A stretch of DNA of 21,612 nt from a virus, in the IMG/VR virus record IMGVR_UViG_3300032677_000188, positions 1 through 21,612 of that record; one strand, given 5' to 3'. The translations under genes were made by a program, and so were the position numbers. Below, piece by piece: positions 9,142 to 16,809 of this stretch (positions within the stretch are counted from its first letter, which is position 1; every line of letters begins with the position of its first letter). Below the pieces are notes generated by a model. The model was not told where the DNA came from. It saw only the letters and a list, made by a program, of their open reading frames with translations, and searched no databases.

Positions 9142-10188
9142 ATGTCCACGCCATCGTCGGCGTCGTGGTTCTTTGGTGCGCCGGACCCGTTCGACGACTT
9201 CGCTGGTCCCCTTGCACAAGTAGCGACCAGTTACGGAGCCGTTGGTTCTGGGGGATTCTCTTACTCGGGTTCTGCCACGGCGAGCCCCGTGGCGTCATCA
9301 TCGACGACGTACGCCTACACGGGAGCTGCGGGGGCATCCCTGGTGACATCGGGTGCATCCTCCTACCCCTTCGCCGCGTCAGCCGCGGCGTCCCCGTCGG
9401 TAGGGACAGCCACCACTTATTCCTATTCGGGCAACGCGAGCCTTCAGTTCCAGGTATCTGCCTCGGGTGCGTATCCCTTTTTGGGTTCAGCCTCGGCGAG
9501 TCCGGTAGTTTCCTCGGTGACCAGTTACCCGTTCCTCGGTGCGTCGTCGCTTTCCATCAAAGTCGCCTCAACCGTGTCGTACACCTACTCGGGGGCTGCG
9601 GGGATTGCCCTAAATATTGGCTCCTCGACGACGTTCTCCTACTCTGGGTCGGCGTCGGTAAAACTTGCCACGAGCGGGTCAGGTCCATACCTCTTCGCGG
9701 GCTCCCTGTCCGTATCCGTTCAAGTACTTGGGTCTTCGCAGTTCCTCTATCTCGGGTACGGCTCGGCGAGTCCGGTCGTGTCCTCTGCATCCTCCTACCC
9801 CTTCGCCGCGTCAGCCGCGGCGTCCCCGTCGGTAGGGGGGATGGGGCCGTACCTGTACTCGGGTTCTGCCACGGCGAACATAGGGTCGGATTCCTACTAC
9901 GTCACGGGATCGGCGAAGTACCTGTTTTCCTCCACTGGGCAAGTGAGTCCCGTCATCGCGGGCGTCGCAGTCTACCTGTATTCCGGCTTGGCGGTCGGGG
10001 TTCTCAAGTTCATCGGGATACCAGGCACCGCGTCCAGTTCCACCGCTGCCGCAGTGGTTCGCGGATCGCTGATTTCGGGTCTTGTCGCTGGTTCGGTGAG
10101 ATATCCGCTGCTTAGGGGCAGTACAATTGGGCCAAGCGTTCGAGGCGCGACCAAGTCGGCGGCGGTCCGTGGGATGACTGAGGTTTAG
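9142..10188 (+). CDS. Fibre-like protein of 18-residue tandem repeats
   Basis: 348-residue Ser/Ala/Gly/Tyr-rich protein that I do not recognise. Residues 39-236 are eleven tandem units of exactly 18 residues with no indels, following [YF]-x-[YF]-x-[GA]-x-x-x-x-x-x-x-V-x(5), as in YPFLGSASASPVVSSVTS. Further degenerate copies run to about residue 290. The C-terminus changes to RGS/RGAT/RGMT motifs (about 305-345) that may be a capping or attachment region. The strict aromatic and small-residue spacing suggests a beta-solenoid or extended beta fibre. Placement among virion genes makes a tail fibre, stalk or adhesin likely, but this is inference. ATG 9142 lies three bases after the previous stop; TAG is followed at once by the next ATG. 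Confidence 0.65.
   Translation: MSTPSSASWFFGAPDPFDDFAGPLAQVATSYGAVGSGGFSYSGSATASPVASSSTTYAYTGAAGASLVTSGASSYPFAASAAASPSVGTATTYSYSGNASLQFQVSASGAYPFLGSASASPVVSSVTSYPFLGASSLSIKVASTVSYTYSGAAGIALNIGSSTTFSYSGSASVKLATSGSGPYLFAGSLSVSVQVLGSSQFLYLGYGSASPVVSSASSYPFAASAAASPSVGGMGPYLYSGSATANIGSDSYYVTGSAKYLFSSTGQVSPVIAGVAVYLYSGLAVGVLKFIGIPGTASSSTAAAVVRGSLISGLVAGSVRYPLLRGSTIGPSVRGATKSAAVRGMTEV
9354..9405 (+). repeat. 52-bp exact direct repeat, copy 1
   Basis: Identical to 9786-9837. The copies lie 432 bp apart, which is eight 54-bp units and 144 codons, so recombination between them would delete or duplicate sequence without breaking the frame. Confidence 0.9.
9786..9837 (+). repeat. 52-bp exact direct repeat, copy 2
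   Basis: Second copy of the 9354-9405 sequence, covering the end of unit 10 and most of unit 11 in the fibre-like gene. The bases just outside differ, so the identity has sharp limits. Confidence 0.9.
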
Positions 10189-10566: not shown

Positions 10567-10607
10567 ATCCGCCATTTTTGCTCATTGACGTGCGAGAATG
10601 CAAGGTA

Positions 10608-10910
10608 ATGAACCCACAGGACGCCGAATGCCGAAAGCGCGGAATCCCTTGTAACTGGTTCTTCGATTATGAGAACATCGCCAATCCGAATCATCCTCTC
10701 GGGCGGGTTCCAAAAGCGTGTGTCGACGCTTGCGCGAATTGCTCCATCCGTGTCGAATGCCTCGACTGGGCGTTGAGCCACGAACTGCACGGATATTGGG
10801 CCGGGACTCGCAAGAACGCGCGCCAGAAACTCCGTAAAACTCTAGGGGTGAGGCTTATTCGTAGCGAGTCGTCGCCTCCGTGGTGGGATGAGGACACTAC
10901 TTGGGTGTAG
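10608..10910 (+). CDS. WhiB-family Fe-S transcriptional regulator
   Basis: 100-residue WhiB-like protein. The family binds a 4Fe-4S cluster through four Cys and modulates sigma-factor-dependent transcription in actinobacteria. The canonical ligands are C15, C42, C45 and C51 (CANCSIRVEC gives C-x2-C-x5-C), followed by the turn motif GYWAG at 62-66 and a basic C-terminal tail (TRKNARQKLRK). Two extra Cys, C8 and C38, flank the normal set. ATG 10608 with a nearby AAGG site is preferred over TTG 10578, which would add ten residues starting inside the previous intergenic gap. The family is essentially restricted to actinobacteria and their phages. It may reprogram host transcription or switch phage stages; the target is unknown. 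Confidence 0.9.
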   Translation: MNPQDAECRKRGIPCNWFFDYENIANPNHPLGRVPKACVDACANCSIRVECLDWALSHELHGYWAGTRKNARQKLRKTLGVRLIRSESSPPWWDEDTTWV

Positions 10911-11421: not shown

Positions 11422-11494
11422 CTATAGACTAGACACCCGTCTACAACCCTGCTACACTTCAACCAACCCAGTGGAAAGGAAATGAAATGGACAT
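11422..11494 (+). promoter_or_regulatory. Repeated promoter-leader cassette, copy 1
   Basis: Contains TAGACA (-35, 11430-11435), a 17-base spacer and TACACT (-10, 11453-11458) with an extended TGC just before it. The predicted transcript start is near 11465. A Shine-Dalgarno GGAAAGGA (11473-11480) precedes ATG 11487 of the Gam-like gene by six bases. A dyad TAGAC-N4-GTCTA (11430-11443) overlaps the -35 box and is a candidate operator. The 73 bp are identical to copy 2 at 13411-13483. An out-of-frame ATG at 11482 is too close to the Shine-Dalgarno to compete well. Confidence 0.85.
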
Positions 11495-13410: not shown

Positions 13411-13483
13411 CTATAGACTAGACACCCGTCTACAACCCTGCTACACTTCAACCAACCCAGTGGAAAGGAAATGAAATGGACAT
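13411..13483 (+). promoter_or_regulatory. Repeated promoter-leader cassette, copy 2
   Basis: Identical over 73 bp to copy 1 and beginning directly after the stop of the winged-helix gene. It has TAGACA at 13419-13424, TACACT at 13442-13447 with extended TGC, and the dyad at 13419-13432. The Shine-Dalgarno leads into ATG 13476 of the zinc-ribbon gene. The leftmost base of the identity is the first base after a TAA stop, so the cassette sits as a clean module between genes. Confidence 0.85.
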
Positions 13484-13733
13484 AATCACTTGCCCAGACT
13501 GCGGAACCTCGGAGAATGTTCACGCGACAGAAAAGGGGTATTTGTGCGCACTCTGTCTTGCTCATTGGCCTTACGACCATCGTGAGGCTTGCTGCGAACC
13601 TGACTTCGACTACGAGAAGGGAAAGTACGTTCACGGGCCGGACTGCCGAGCATGGTTCATGGCCGAAGGCGACCGGCTGATCGAAGAGTTGAAGAAGAGC
13701 ATCAACAACCTGAGGGAGTTGGTCGGAGAATGA
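13476..13733 (+). CDS. Small zinc-ribbon protein
   Basis: 85-residue protein with an N-terminal zinc ribbon: C6-x2-C9 (CPDC) and C24-x2-C27 (CALC). A second Cys group (C39, C40 and the C of HGPDC near 57) could bind another metal ion. The C-terminus is a charged helix (RLIEELKKSINNLRELVG). I do not recognise a specific family. It is the first gene behind promoter cassette copy 2, so it should be among the earliest and most strongly expressed. The stop overlaps the next start as ATGA. DNA, RNA or protein binding is possible; the sequence does not say which. Confidence 0.65.
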   Translation: MDIITCPDCGTSENVHATEKGYLCALCLAHWPYDHREACCEPDFDYEKGKYVHGPDCRAWFMAEGDRLIEELKKSINNLRELVGE

Positions 13734-13927
13734 ATATCGAAACAAAATTCGGAATTGGTGACCGTAGTGACTATGGGGTTGTGTCAGATGTCGAGATATA
13801 TGTGAGCGATGGAGAGATCGTAATTAAATACTGGCACCGAAACGGAGTTGAGTGGATACCCGAGGATGAAATGTCCATGATTTCATTAGCGTGTAAACAC
13901 ACTATCCCTGAGGTCGAGGTTCGATGA
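13730..13927 (+). CDS. Small acidic protein, unknown function
   Basis: 65-residue protein starting at ATG 13730 in an ATGA overlap; a longer reading from GTG 13652 would run far into the zinc-ribbon gene and is unlikely. The sequence alternates strand and turn (VVSDVEIYVSDGEIVIKYW), resembling a small SH3-like or Tudor-like barrel with conserved-looking aromatic residues (YWHRNGVEWIP). No catalytic motif is visible. It is co-translated with the zinc-ribbon protein and with the hexapeptide repeat protein that follows. Confidence 0.55.
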   Translation: MNIETKFGIGDRSDYGVVSDVEIYVSDGEIVIKYWHRNGVEWIPEDEMSMISLACKHTIPEVEVR

Positions 13928-14748
13928 GAGATATTCCACTGGATCTACAACGACAAGGAGCGCTAGATGTTCTGTCAGAGGATTGGATTGGAGGGGGTAT
14001 GAAATACAAGGAACAACTGACCAAGGAGAACACAATGAACGTATTGAAACTAACCGCTAAGGACTTCAAGAATGGCGAGTACGTCGGAACAGAGACGTTC
14101 GATGCCGAGTATCAAGGCTCAGTGGAGATCGAGGGTTCGCTCGGCTATCAACAGATAAGTCGTATCTGGTGTTCGGGCTCACTGTATATAGAGGCGGGCA
14201 CGTCCATCAAGGCGGGCTCGTATATCAAGGCGGGCTCGTTCATCAAGGCGGGCTCGTTCATCGAGGCGGGCTCGTCCATCGAGGCGGGCACGTCCATCAA
14301 GGCGGGCTCGTCCATCATGGCGGGCTCGTCCATCATGGCGGGCTGGTCCATCGAGGCGGGCTCGTCCATCATGGCGGGCTGGTCCATCGAGGCGGGCTCG
14401 TCCATCAAGGCGGGCACGTCCATCAAGGCGGGCTCGTTCATCGAGGCGGGCTCGTCCATCAAGGCGGTAAGAGGATTAACAGCGGGACGATGGGTAACGT
14501 GCAAACTCTCGCTGAAGATTGGCTGGCGAATCATTGCTGGTGTCGCGCCGTGGATCGACGGCTCTGATCCAAATGATTCAACAGTTACCTGCGGGAAACT
14601 GGAATCCGGAAAGTTCGTTGGAACGCTGGTGGAAACGGGATTGCCAGACGATAAGACCGAACAAGCCAACGCTGTATGCAACCACCGTCAGACAGGAAAG
14701 TTCTGCTCCGACTGCGGAGAGAAGTTGGAAGCCGAGGAGGGGGAGTGA
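13924..14748 (+). CDS. Hexapeptide-repeat beta-solenoid protein with C-terminal zinc ribbon
   Basis: Up to 274 residues. The core holds fifteen perfect 6-residue repeats, I-[KEM]-A-G-[STW]-[SFY] (nt 14188-14457), the pattern of a left-handed beta helix with Ile inside. A beta domain follows (GWRIIAGVAPWIDG, then GKLESGKFVGTLVETG), and the end CNHRQTGKFCSDCG is a likely zinc ribbon. Start choice is open: ATG 13924 (ATGA overlap), ATG 13999 (after GGAGGGGG) or ATG 14035, which has the best-placed Shine-Dalgarno (AAGGAG at 14023-14028) and begins MNVLKLTAKDF. The gene is in the early region, so it is unlikely to be a tail fibre. It is not an acyltransferase: no catalytic His is visible. Function unknown. 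Confidence 0.7.
   Translation: MRDIPLDLQRQGALDVLSEDWIGGGMKYKEQLTKENTMNVLKLTAKDFKNGEYVGTETFDAEYQGSVEIEGSLGYQQISRIWCSGSLYIEAGTSIKAGSYIKAGSFIKAGSFIEAGSSIEAGTSIKAGSSIMAGSSIMAGWSIEAGSSIMAGWSIEAGSSIKAGTSIKAGSFIEAGSSIKAVRGLTAGRWVTCKLSLKIGWRIIAGVAPWIDGSDPNDSTVTCGKLESGKFVGTLVETGLPDDKTEQANAVCNHRQTGKFCSDCGEKLEAEEGE
14188..14457 (+). repeat. Fifteen-unit 18-bp coding tandem repeat
   Basis: Consensus ATC RAG GCG GGC TCG TCC. Ile, Ala and Gly codons are almost invariant, while changes fall on the second, fifth and sixth codons (AAG/GAG/ATG, TCG/ACG/TGG, TCC/TTC/TAT). A degenerate sixteenth unit (IKAVRG) follows. All frames stay open through the array. Confidence 0.9.
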
Positions 14749-15545
14749 AGAACTATAAAGAGTGCGCGACAAAGCAAGACCTAGAGAGGATTCTTGCCGC
14801 AGGTGATATCCCGATCTTGCGAGAGGGATATTGGACGATAGGGGGCTCCGCGACGGTGCGGGCTTCGGACTCCGCGACGGTGCGGGCTTCGGACTCCGCG
14901 ACGGTGCGGGCTTCGGGCTCCGCGACGGTGCGGGCTTCGGACTCCGCGACGGTGCAGGCTTCGGACTCCGCGACGGTGCAGGCTTGGGACTCCGCGACGG
15001 TGCGGGCTTCGGACTCCGCGACGGTGCAGGCTTGGGACTCCGCGACGGTGCAGGCTTGGGGCTCCGCGACGGTGCGGGCTTCGGGCTCCGCGACGGTGGA
15101 GGCTTCTCCCTACGTCGCCGTCACCAAGCACGGGACTACTCCCAAGATCACCGGAGGGGTAGTCATCCAAATCCCCCGATTGGACAATACCGAGACGTGG
15201 CTGAAGTTCTACGGCATCACCCCGACCAAAGCAGGAAAAGTAACGCTCTTCAAGGCCGTCAGCGACGAGTTCAAGTCTGGCTACGAGTGGGACTACTCCC
15301 CTGGCTCAAAGCCGACCGCTTTCGACTTCGAGGCGACCAACGAGTGCGGGAAGGGTCTGCACCTGTGTGCCCGACCGACCATCTCCAAGAAGTACATGAC
15401 CGGGGCCACCCGCTACGTGGCCTGCACCGTCAACGTCTCCGAGATTGTCGTGATTCACGAAGATGGAGAATCGAACAAGGTGAAGGTACCGAGAATCCTG
15501 AAGTGCGTGGAGTGCGACGAGGACGGGAAGGCGGTGCGGAAGTGA
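14745..15545 (+). CDS. Octapeptide-repeat protein with C-terminal DUF7666-like domain
   Basis: 266 residues from GTG 14745 (GTGA overlap, behind GAGGAGGGGGA). Residues 1-34 are a helical cap (YKECATKQDLERILAAGDIP); residues 35-122 are eleven perfect octapeptides S-A-T-V-[RQE]-A-[SW]-[DG], a short beta-solenoid. The C-terminal ~140 residues contain TLFKAVSDEFKSGYEW, FEATNECGKGLHLCARPT and RYVACTVNVSEIVVI, which I recall from phage proteins with a DUF7666-type domain that often follows such repeats; biochemical role unknown. The two solenoid genes are adjacent but have different repeat period and C-terminal domain, so they are not simple duplicates. The stop overlaps a tiny next frame (GTGA). 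Confidence 0.7.
   Translation: MKNYKECATKQDLERILAAGDIPILREGYWTIGGSATVRASDSATVRASDSATVRASGSATVRASDSATVQASDSATVQAWDSATVRASDSATVQAWDSATVQAWGSATVRASGSATVEASPYVAVTKHGTTPKITGGVVIQIPRLDNTETWLKFYGITPTKAGKVTLFKAVSDEFKSGYEWDYSPGSKPTAFDFEATNECGKGLHLCARPTISKKYMTGATRYVACTVNVSEIVVIHEDGESNKVKVPRILKCVECDEDGKAVRK
14847..15110 (+). repeat. Eleven-unit 24-bp coding tandem repeat
   Basis: Consensus TCC GCG ACG GTG CGG GCT TCG GAC. The SATV and Ala codons are nearly invariant at DNA level; changes are limited to CGG/CAG/GAG, TCG/TGG and GAC/GGC. Near identity between units indicates recent expansion. Frames on both strands stay open through it. Confidence 0.9.
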
Positions 15546-16535: not shown

Positions 16536-16708
16536 CCACCGTCGCTGAGAAGATGGAGTGGCTGAGTTCTCACCCGCGAACGTGGTTCTGCTGGGCGAAG
16601 AAGCCCTACCCCTACACAGCCAAGCCGGTGAAAGGACCAGCGTTCGAGCGCAAATACATCCGCGACCTACTGACCGGAGAATGGGAGTTTTGGGTTAGGT
16701 CAGAATAG
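16532..16708 (+). CDS. 58-residue basic aromatic protein, unknown function
   Basis: Starts at ATG 16532 in an ATGA overlap. Trp- and Lys/Arg-rich throughout (TWFCWAKKPYPYTAKPVKGP, then RKYIRDLLTGEWEFWV), with no membrane segment or paired Cys. Its TAG stop (16706-16708) lies within the first bases of promoter cassette copy 3, so that promoter begins inside this gene's end. I do not recognise it; a DNA-mimic role is unlikely given the positive charge. Confidence 0.55.
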   Translation: MTTVAEKMEWLSSHPRTWFCWAKKPYPYTAKPVKGPAFERKYIRDLLTGEWEFWVRSE

Positions 16709-16770
16709 ACTAGACACCCGTCTACAACCCTGCTACACTTCAACCAACCCAGTGGAAAGGAAACGAAATG
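16705..16770 (+). promoter_or_regulatory. Repeated promoter-leader cassette, copy 3
   Basis: 66 bp matching copies 1 and 2 with a single change (T to C at 16764). It has TAGACA at 16711-16716, TACACT at 16734-16739 with extended TGC, and the dyad at 16711-16724. The T-to-C change removes the upstream decoy ATG present in the other copies, leaving ATG 16768 as the first start after the Shine-Dalgarno. It should drive the membrane-peptide, helicase, methyltransferase and HNH unit. Confidence 0.85.
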
Positions 16771-16809
16771 ACCAAGATTCGAAAGACAGGAAAAGGGGAT
16801 CCCGAATGA
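16768..16809 (+). CDS. Possible 13-residue leader cistron (MTKIRKTGKGDPE)
   Basis: The first start after cassette copy 3, with its Shine-Dalgarno at the same distance used by the Gam-like and zinc-ribbon genes. The peptide is basic. Its TGA overlaps the next ATG (ATGA at 16806-16809), so ribosomes finishing it could start the membrane peptide. It could be a leader peptide controlling the operon or the truncated start of a lost gene. Confidence 0.45.
   Translation: MTKIRKTGKGDPE

What the first reader, a model, noticed from the sequence alone, without database searches (positions are those of the whole stretch)
13924..15545. Two adjacent early-region beta-solenoid proteins with different repeat period
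A 6-residue repeat protein and an 8-residue repeat protein lie head to tail under an early-type promoter, each with its own C-terminal domain (zinc ribbon; DUF7666-like). Beta-solenoids are expected in tail spikes, but these are far from the virion genes and coupled to zinc-ribbon genes. They might be DNA mimics, decoys or scaffolds that counter host defence. The pairing, not each protein alone, is what looks new.
Basis: inference. Interest (0 to 1): 0.6.

Follow-up and report, generated by a model that had tools for sequence, protein, structure and literature searches.

The report
Two early phage repeat-solenoid proteins, one RIIB-like
Two neighbouring phage genes of the early type encode fast-evolving spring-shaped repeat proteins; one ends in the same domain as the classic anti-defence protein RIIB of phage T4, and in both families the exposed residues look selected to vary, so they are probably intracellular binding tools rather than virion parts, although the two genes are not a conserved pair.

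Summary
In detail: two overlapping genes (14035-14748, 14745-15545) encode an 18-bp/6-residue and a 24-bp/8-residue repeat protein in an actinobacterial phage fragment, downstream of a 73-nt promoter cassette that occurs three times. Both belong to wider phage families. The first is a hexapeptide left-handed-helix family, widespread in environmental phages. The second (PHROG 15773; Che8 gp59, SkinnyPete gp38 and others) lies in early regions and ends in DUF7666, which by profile and predicted structure is the C-terminal domain of RIIB. RIIA and RIIB counter RexAB immunity in T4-like phages, so a counter-defence role is plausible for it. DNA mimicry is not supported: the arrays are nearly neutral. 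The pairing is not conserved: 0 of 28 other records with the second gene carry the first, and 0 of 48 other records with the first carry the second. New here: within arrays, synonymous sites are nearly frozen while exposed codons vary (pN/pS 2.1 and 3.2; neutral simulation about 1), and unit number differs (3-7, and 12 versus 14) between phages whose DUF7666 DNA is identical. Best reading: two independent, rapidly re-tailored binding solenoids, side by side by accessory-gene turnover.

The parts
13411..13483 (+). promoter/operator/RBS cassette ahead of the operon (TAGACA-17-TACACT; contains TAGAC-ACCC-GTCTA inverted repeat); further copies at 11422-11494 and 16703-16775
   Evidence: direct repeat family D3; promoter-like hit at all three copies; inverted repeat read from the sequence
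13476..13733 (+). small Cys-rich (zinc-ribbon-like) ORF, first gene after the cassette
   Evidence: ORF; only weak Zn_ribbon hits
13730..13927 (+). small ORF of unknown function
   Evidence: ORF, no family hit
14035..14748 (+). gene 1 (W1): hexapeptide-repeat beta-helix protein, 237 aa, with conserved N-cap and C-terminal 'TxTCGKLE..G' region
   Evidence: Pfam Hexapep 1.7e-9; family alignment A5; AF2 model
14192..14467 (+). 18-bp x 15.3 tandem array of gene 1
   Evidence: TRF
14745..15545 (+). gene 2 (W2): octapeptide-repeat beta-solenoid + DUF7666/RIIB C-terminal-type domain, 266 aa, GTG start overlapping gene 1 stop
   Evidence: phrog_15773 2.9e-42; DUF7666; AF2 model pLDDT 92; Foldseek BFVD
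14846..15106 (+). 24-bp x 10.9 tandem array of gene 2
   Evidence: TRF
15200..15545 (+). region coding the DUF7666 / RIIB C-terminal-like domain (about residues 152-266)
   Evidence: RIIB PHROGs match residues 152-250; RIIB models match over about 113-115 columns

Best explanation
Both genes most likely encode intracellular, early-expressed phage proteins whose tandem arrays fold into beta-solenoids that serve as fast-changing binding surfaces. Core residues are fixed for the fold, exposed residues differ from unit to unit, and unit number changes quickly by tandem duplication and loss. Gene 2 presents a C-terminal DUF7666 domain homologous to the C-terminus of RIIB; the likeliest role is to bind and neutralise (or shield the phage from) a host or prophage membrane/abortive defence, with the solenoid as the adaptable targeting part. 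Gene 1 is a stand-alone solenoid of a separate, widespread phage family with a similar adaptable-binder role. They are neighbours in one accessory operon, not a conserved two-component system. Shown by computation: families, genome context, predicted fold, RIIB-domain homology, near-neutral charge, array-length change, excess non-synonymous variation. Inferred: early expression, binding, defence as the target, independence of the two proteins.
For: RIIB homology by profile (phrog_609 5.3e-8, phrog_36818 5.2e-6, phrog_3803 3e-5) and by structure (RIIB models at E 4e-6 to 3e-4, prob 1.00, mostly rmsd 2.4-3.2 over about 115 columns). RIIA/RIIB of diverse phages counteract RexAB (PMC11879866) and RIIB is itself sensed by a gasdermin defence (PMC12409349). 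Relatives of gene 2 sit between repressor/antirepressor/excise and WhiB/RecE-RecT genes. Within-array pN/pS: W1 family 2.06 (95% 1.63-2.65), exposed positions 3.55, core 0.27; W2 family 3.19 (2.45-4.36), exposed 4.35, core 0.45. Robust to composition and kappa; codon position 3 is less variable than both other positions in 60 of 76 and 14 of 20 arrays. Simulation: neutral arrays give 0.90-1.17, core-purifying arrays about 0.5; divergent virion-module repeat of the same phage 0.83. Phages with identical DUF7666 DNA carry 4, 4, 3 and 7 units, or 12 and 14.
Against: No expression or functional data. Gene 2 has only the RIIB C-terminal domain and no RIIA-like gene was found among the window ORFs scanned, so RIIB function cannot be assumed. 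DUF7666 also occurs on giant-virus ankyrin proteins, so it need not mean counter-defence. Other phage repeat ORFs, some helical or tetrad-type, show the same excess of non-synonymous change, so it may be a general feature of such arrays rather than a sign of this function. Arrays from related phages are not fully independent.
Confidence: 0.5

Rival explanations
1. The two proteins form a dedicated pair (co-scaffold or toxin/antidote-like unit) that works only together.
For: Overlapping GTGA start/stop and one promoter cassette; different repeat periods side by side.
Against: Hexapeptide family absent from 28 other records carrying the octapeptide/DUF7666 gene (plus one Porphyromonas record with octads only). 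Octapeptide/DUF7666 gene absent from 48 other records of the hexapeptide family, apart from repeat-only partial hits in one. Short gene overlaps are usual in phage operons.
Confidence: 0.06
2. DNA mimics or DNA-mimic decoys, like the pentapeptide protein MfpA.
For: Beta-solenoid shape; early location; a few family arrays are acidic (L006, L007: about -0.9 and -0.8 per octad).
Against: Window arrays have net charge +1 and -2, pI 5.1 and 8.1; median family charge per hexad -0.27; octad arrays range from positive to negative. A mimic needs sustained negative charge.
Confidence: 0.04
3. Virion spikes, needle or baseplate parts.
For: Octad repeats resemble the T4 gp5 needle repeat (Gp5_trimer_C 7.1e-5, below cut-off; phrog_9992).
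Against: Located among Gam/Erf/replication genes, 3 kb or more past the last tail ORFs; relatives consistently in early regions; C-terminal RIIB domain; no tail domain attached.
Confidence: 0.05
4. Selfish or near-neutral tandem-repeat expansions riding on tolerant genes; the solenoid has no specific function and only DUF7666 matters.
For: Array length changes freely, down to 3 units; the array is broken by frameshift in Nitzel and apparently in others.
Against: Strong purifying selection on core positions and excess change at exposed ones, against neutral simulation.
Confidence: 0.2
5. DUF7666 is a degenerate or active ADP-ribosyltransferase-like domain, so gene 2 is an enzyme of host takeover with a solenoid targeting arm.
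For: Weak PDB Foldseek hits to PARP10 ART and to CNFy, whose relative CNF1 has an ADP-ribosyltransferase-like domain D4 (PMC9426531); invariant K170, H206 and E256.
Against: Foldseek probabilities at most 0.35 and E at least 0.19; no profile hit to any ART family in Pfam.
Confidence: 0.12

Closest known systems
PHROG 15773 / mycobacteriophage Che8 gp59, SkinnyPete gp38, Squirty gp51 (all 'hypothetical protein')
   Same: same architecture: short N-cap, 8-residue array, cap strand, DUF7666; same kind of early location
   Different: 35-41% identity; upstream neighbour there is an unrelated small gene, not a hexapeptide solenoid
RIIB lysis-inhibition / anti-RexAB proteins of T4-like phages
   Same: C-terminal domain by profile and predicted structure
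   Different: rest of RIIB absent, replaced by a repeat solenoid; no RIIA gene found in the window
Bacterial hexapeptide-transferase left-handed beta-helix (LpxA, LpxD, GlmU)
   Same: gene 1 repeat passes Pfam Hexapep; weak fold hits
   Different: no catalytic domain, no conserved His among invariant residues, C-terminal region specific to phages; NCBIfam scores far below cut-offs
T4 gp5 C-terminal octapeptide needle
   Same: octad period and VxA-type spacing (sub-threshold)
   Different: not fused to lysozyme/OB domains; not among virion genes
TALE/STAR/MOON-type modular repeat proteins (PMC11417379)
   Same: near-identical repeats with variation concentrated at a few exposed positions
   Different: beta-solenoid rather than helical repeats; ligand unknown; no evidence of DNA binding

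Membership tests
PHROG 15773 (octad + DUF7666 early phage proteins) | full-length profile match with same domain order | tested here: met
   E 2.9e-42, residues 34-263 of 266; alignment
PHROG 15773 (octad + DUF7666 early phage proteins) | early-region location | tested here: met
   window: Gam, Erf, replication-initiator genes just upstream; relatives:
RIIB | C-terminal RIIB domain | tested here: met
   phrog_609/36818/3803, Foldseek prob 1.00
RIIB | the rest of the RIIB protein | tested here: not met
   RIIB matches cover only residues 152-250 of gene 2; the N-terminal half is an octad solenoid
RIIB | linked RIIA gene | tested here: inconclusive
   none among the window ORFs scanned; window is a fragment
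RIIB | protects against RexAB-like exclusion | not testable with these tools
   needs infection assays
Hexapeptide LbH acyltransferases | hexapeptide repeat above Pfam cut-off | tested here: met
   37.4 bits vs cut-off 27
Hexapeptide LbH acyltransferases | conserved catalytic histidine / enzyme-family match | tested here: not met
   no invariant His in 10 relatives; NCBIfam enzyme models at 13-41 bits vs cut-offs of 160 or more
DNA-mimic solenoids (MfpA-like) | strong net negative charge of the solenoid | tested here: not met
   +1 and -2
T4 gp5-type needle | Gp5_trimer_C above cut-off | tested here: not met
   23.4 bits vs 30.9
Conserved hexad+octad gene pair | co-occurrence in other phages | tested here: not met
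   0 of 28 and 0 of 48 other records

The most novel reading that the evidence does not exclude
Early phage regions carry a class of modular, TALE-like recognition solenoids: beta-solenoid (and other) arrays whose frozen DNA repeats are re-tailored by unit gain/loss and by diversifying selection at a few exposed codons, aiming effector domains such as the RIIB C-terminus at changing host or prophage defence targets.
Probability: 0.15. Interest if true: 0.85.

Novelty: new variant of a known kind. Interest (0 to 1): 0.5.

Why it matters
RIIB is a founding gene of molecular genetics whose mode of action is still unclear. Finding its C-terminal domain on variable-length solenoids in mycobacterial and other phages gives a small, separable module and a natural series (3 to 21 repeats) for testing what the domain does. 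Excess non-synonymous variation inside these arrays marks them as likely arms-race interfaces and gives a cheap screen for other phage host-interaction proteins.

Tried and rejected
Pairing as a conserved system: searched both ways, not found. The three G052 hits were rejected because they cover the repeat part only (model positions 36-124) and lie over a long tetrad-repeat ORF of another family on the opposite strand. DNA mimicry: charges near neutral. General enrichment of other tandem-repeat genes near these genes: for gene 1 relatives 0.32 arrays per 10 kb within 2 kb against 0.19 at 2-6 kb, a weak difference; for gene 2 relatives 4 of 6 arrays lie within 1 kb but three of these are the same Ala-tetrad type. 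PDB profile search of DUF7666: only chance hits. PDB Foldseek for gene 1: no significant hit, LbH enzymes top the list. Literature: no paper on DUF7666 or on this class of early phage solenoids; the cluster F1 Girr toxicity screen does not mention it. Zinc-ribbon domain of gene 1: not supported beyond a Cys/His tail. Protein scans first failed on off-by-one coordinates.

Full report
Observation. The window is an IMG/VR virus record of 21,612 bp, a fragment of an actinobacterial tailed phage: it has a WhiB-like gene at 10578-10910, tail genes at 1-3.6 kb, and Gam, Erf and replication-initiator genes at 11.5-13.4 kb. It contains two tandem arrays only: 14192-14467 (18 bp) and 14846-15106 (24 bp). 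They lie in two overlapping + strand genes: W1, best start ATG 14035, end 14748; and W2, GTG 14745 to 15545. A 73-nt block with TAGACA-17-TACACT and an RBS occurs at 11422, 13411 (identical) and 16703 (92%), so both genes sit in an operon that shares its promoter sequence with the Gam/Erf operon. Early timing is inferred, not measured.

W1. The array passes Pfam Hexapep (1.7e-9). A C-terminal alignment, then the family alignment A5, recovered 11 and then at least 240 IMG/VR loci, of which 80 were kept. The family has a conserved N-terminus (M-x-T-L-x-L-T-x-K-D-F), 8-36 hexads (median 18.5) and a C-terminus with TxTCGKLE. AlphaFold2 gives a continuous solenoid (pLDDT about 90 in the array) and a disordered tail; the Cys/His tail called a zinc ribbon is private to this phage. 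No catalytic histidine of hexapeptide transferases is conserved.

W2. It matches PHROG 15773 over its length (2.9e-42) and has relatives in 33 phage records, mostly Mycobacterium cluster F and N-type phages plus Gordonia and uncultured phages, and in about 25 non-redundant loci overall. In Che8, SkinnyPete, Squirty, ThetaBob and BabeRuth the gene lies downstream of repressor/antirepressor/excise and upstream of WhiB or RecT-type genes. AlphaFold2 (pLDDT 92) shows N-cap, solenoid with one short strand per octad, then a globular domain. That domain matches DUF7666 in all 16 aligned relatives, RIIB profiles and, by fold, RIIB proteins of many T4-like phages at E 4e-6 to 3e-4 with probability 1.00. 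The same fold search lists ankyrin proteins of giant viruses, so attachment to repeat scaffolds recurs.

Mechanism. RIIA/RIIB of divergent phages counter lambda RexAB (PMC11879866), and RIIB is also an activator of a gasdermin defence (PMC12409349). A RIIB-type C-terminal domain carried by a solenoid is therefore most simply read as an adapted counter-defence or host-membrane protein; this is inference. DNA mimicry is disfavoured: array net charge is +1 and -2 and families scatter around neutral.

Evolution of the arrays. Phages with 100% identical DUF7666 DNA have 4, 4, 3 and 7 units (BabeRuth, Rebel, Raymond7, L031) and 12 and 14 units (SkinnyPete, Frankie). Within arrays, units differ mainly by amino-acid-changing substitutions at exposed positions: pN/pS 2.06 (W1, 76 arrays) and 3.19 (W2, 20 arrays); 3.55 and 4.35 at exposed positions, 0.27 and 0.45 at core positions. 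The third codon position is the quietest, and the result stands under skewed composition and kappa 1-4. Simulated neutral arrays with unit gain and loss give about 1, and core-purifying arrays about 0.5; the diverged 18-residue repeat of a gene in the virion module of the same phage (9142-10188) gives 0.83. Other phage repeat ORFs found nearby, such as the Ala-tetrads of Che8 gp57 and the GAV and SQL tetrads, show the same sign, so this is a property of a wider class. Caveats: shared ancestry among arrays, simple counting method, and metagenomic arrays that may be mis-assembled (several contigs end inside arrays).

Pairing. No locus within about 6 kb, no whole record among 28 other W2 carriers plus one Porphyromonas octad record, and none of 48 other W1 records (window as positive control; one record gave repeat-only partial hits) holds both genes. 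The W1 search was checked on known positives. Different repeat proteins do lie near each other in other phages (hexad with VSGNA-type hexads in L052, with pentapeptides in L081, with tetrad proteins in L042, L061, L079 and L109; octads with Ala-tetrads in Che8, with pentapeptides in L021), but enrichment over background is weak. I read it as accessory-gene turnover.

Verdict. Real, ordinary as a pair, more interesting as a class: a RIIB-domain solenoid family, with signs of diversifying selection on repeat faces in both families. New variant of a known kind; interest 0.5.

Noticed in passing
window 11422-11494, 13411-13483, 16703-16775: Three near-identical 73-nt promoter/operator/RBS cassettes with a TAGAC-ACCC-GTCTA inverted repeat, likely one repressor-controlled regulon.
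   Followed up: partly
L061 7406-8548, L079 7520-9244, L085 816-2381, L087 1-843, L042 7310-7532: Proteins near W1 relatives with GSQV/GAV/SQL tetrad arrays, several of them inserted in what looks like one conserved host protein (DUF6745-like from memory, not tested); same excess of non-synonymous unit variation.
   Followed up: partly
L004 4764-5627 (Che8 gp57), L022 4600-5300, L018 4700-5110, L109 6830-7225: Ala-rich tetrad-repeat (SAAW/SAAE) proteins, mostly close to the octad/DUF7666 gene; Che8 gp57 and the L022 ORF share their flanking sequence.
   Followed up: partly
L148 (NC_051690 Nitzel gp52/gp53), L035/L139 (EleanorGeorge), L038: W2 homologues broken by frameshift (Nitzel within a much shortened array; the others apparently), leaving the parts as separate ORFs.
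   Followed up: partly
L009 5793-6380 (phage ctKR88 and two sister records): W1 homologue is split by a frame break in the array; the next gene encodes a zinc-ribbon protein labelled lysW.
   Followed up: no
W2 model m33bea81faf19, DUF7666 domain: Weak structural resemblance to ADP-ribosyltransferase-like folds (PARP10, CNFy) with invariant K170, H206 and E256; if real it would bear on RIIB function.
   Followed up: partly
window 9142-10188: Gene next to the tail module with 13 diverged 18-residue units (YPFLGSASASPVVSSVTS type).
   Followed up: partly
L012 4719-5492 (Porphyromonas phage005b): SATVRAWG octad array identical in style to W2 but on a protein without DUF7666.
   Followed up: no
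L003, L014, L016, L017, L021, L023, L027: IMG/VR contigs that end inside the octad array or its gene, so arrays break assemblies and metagenomic unit counts may be wrong.
   Followed up: no
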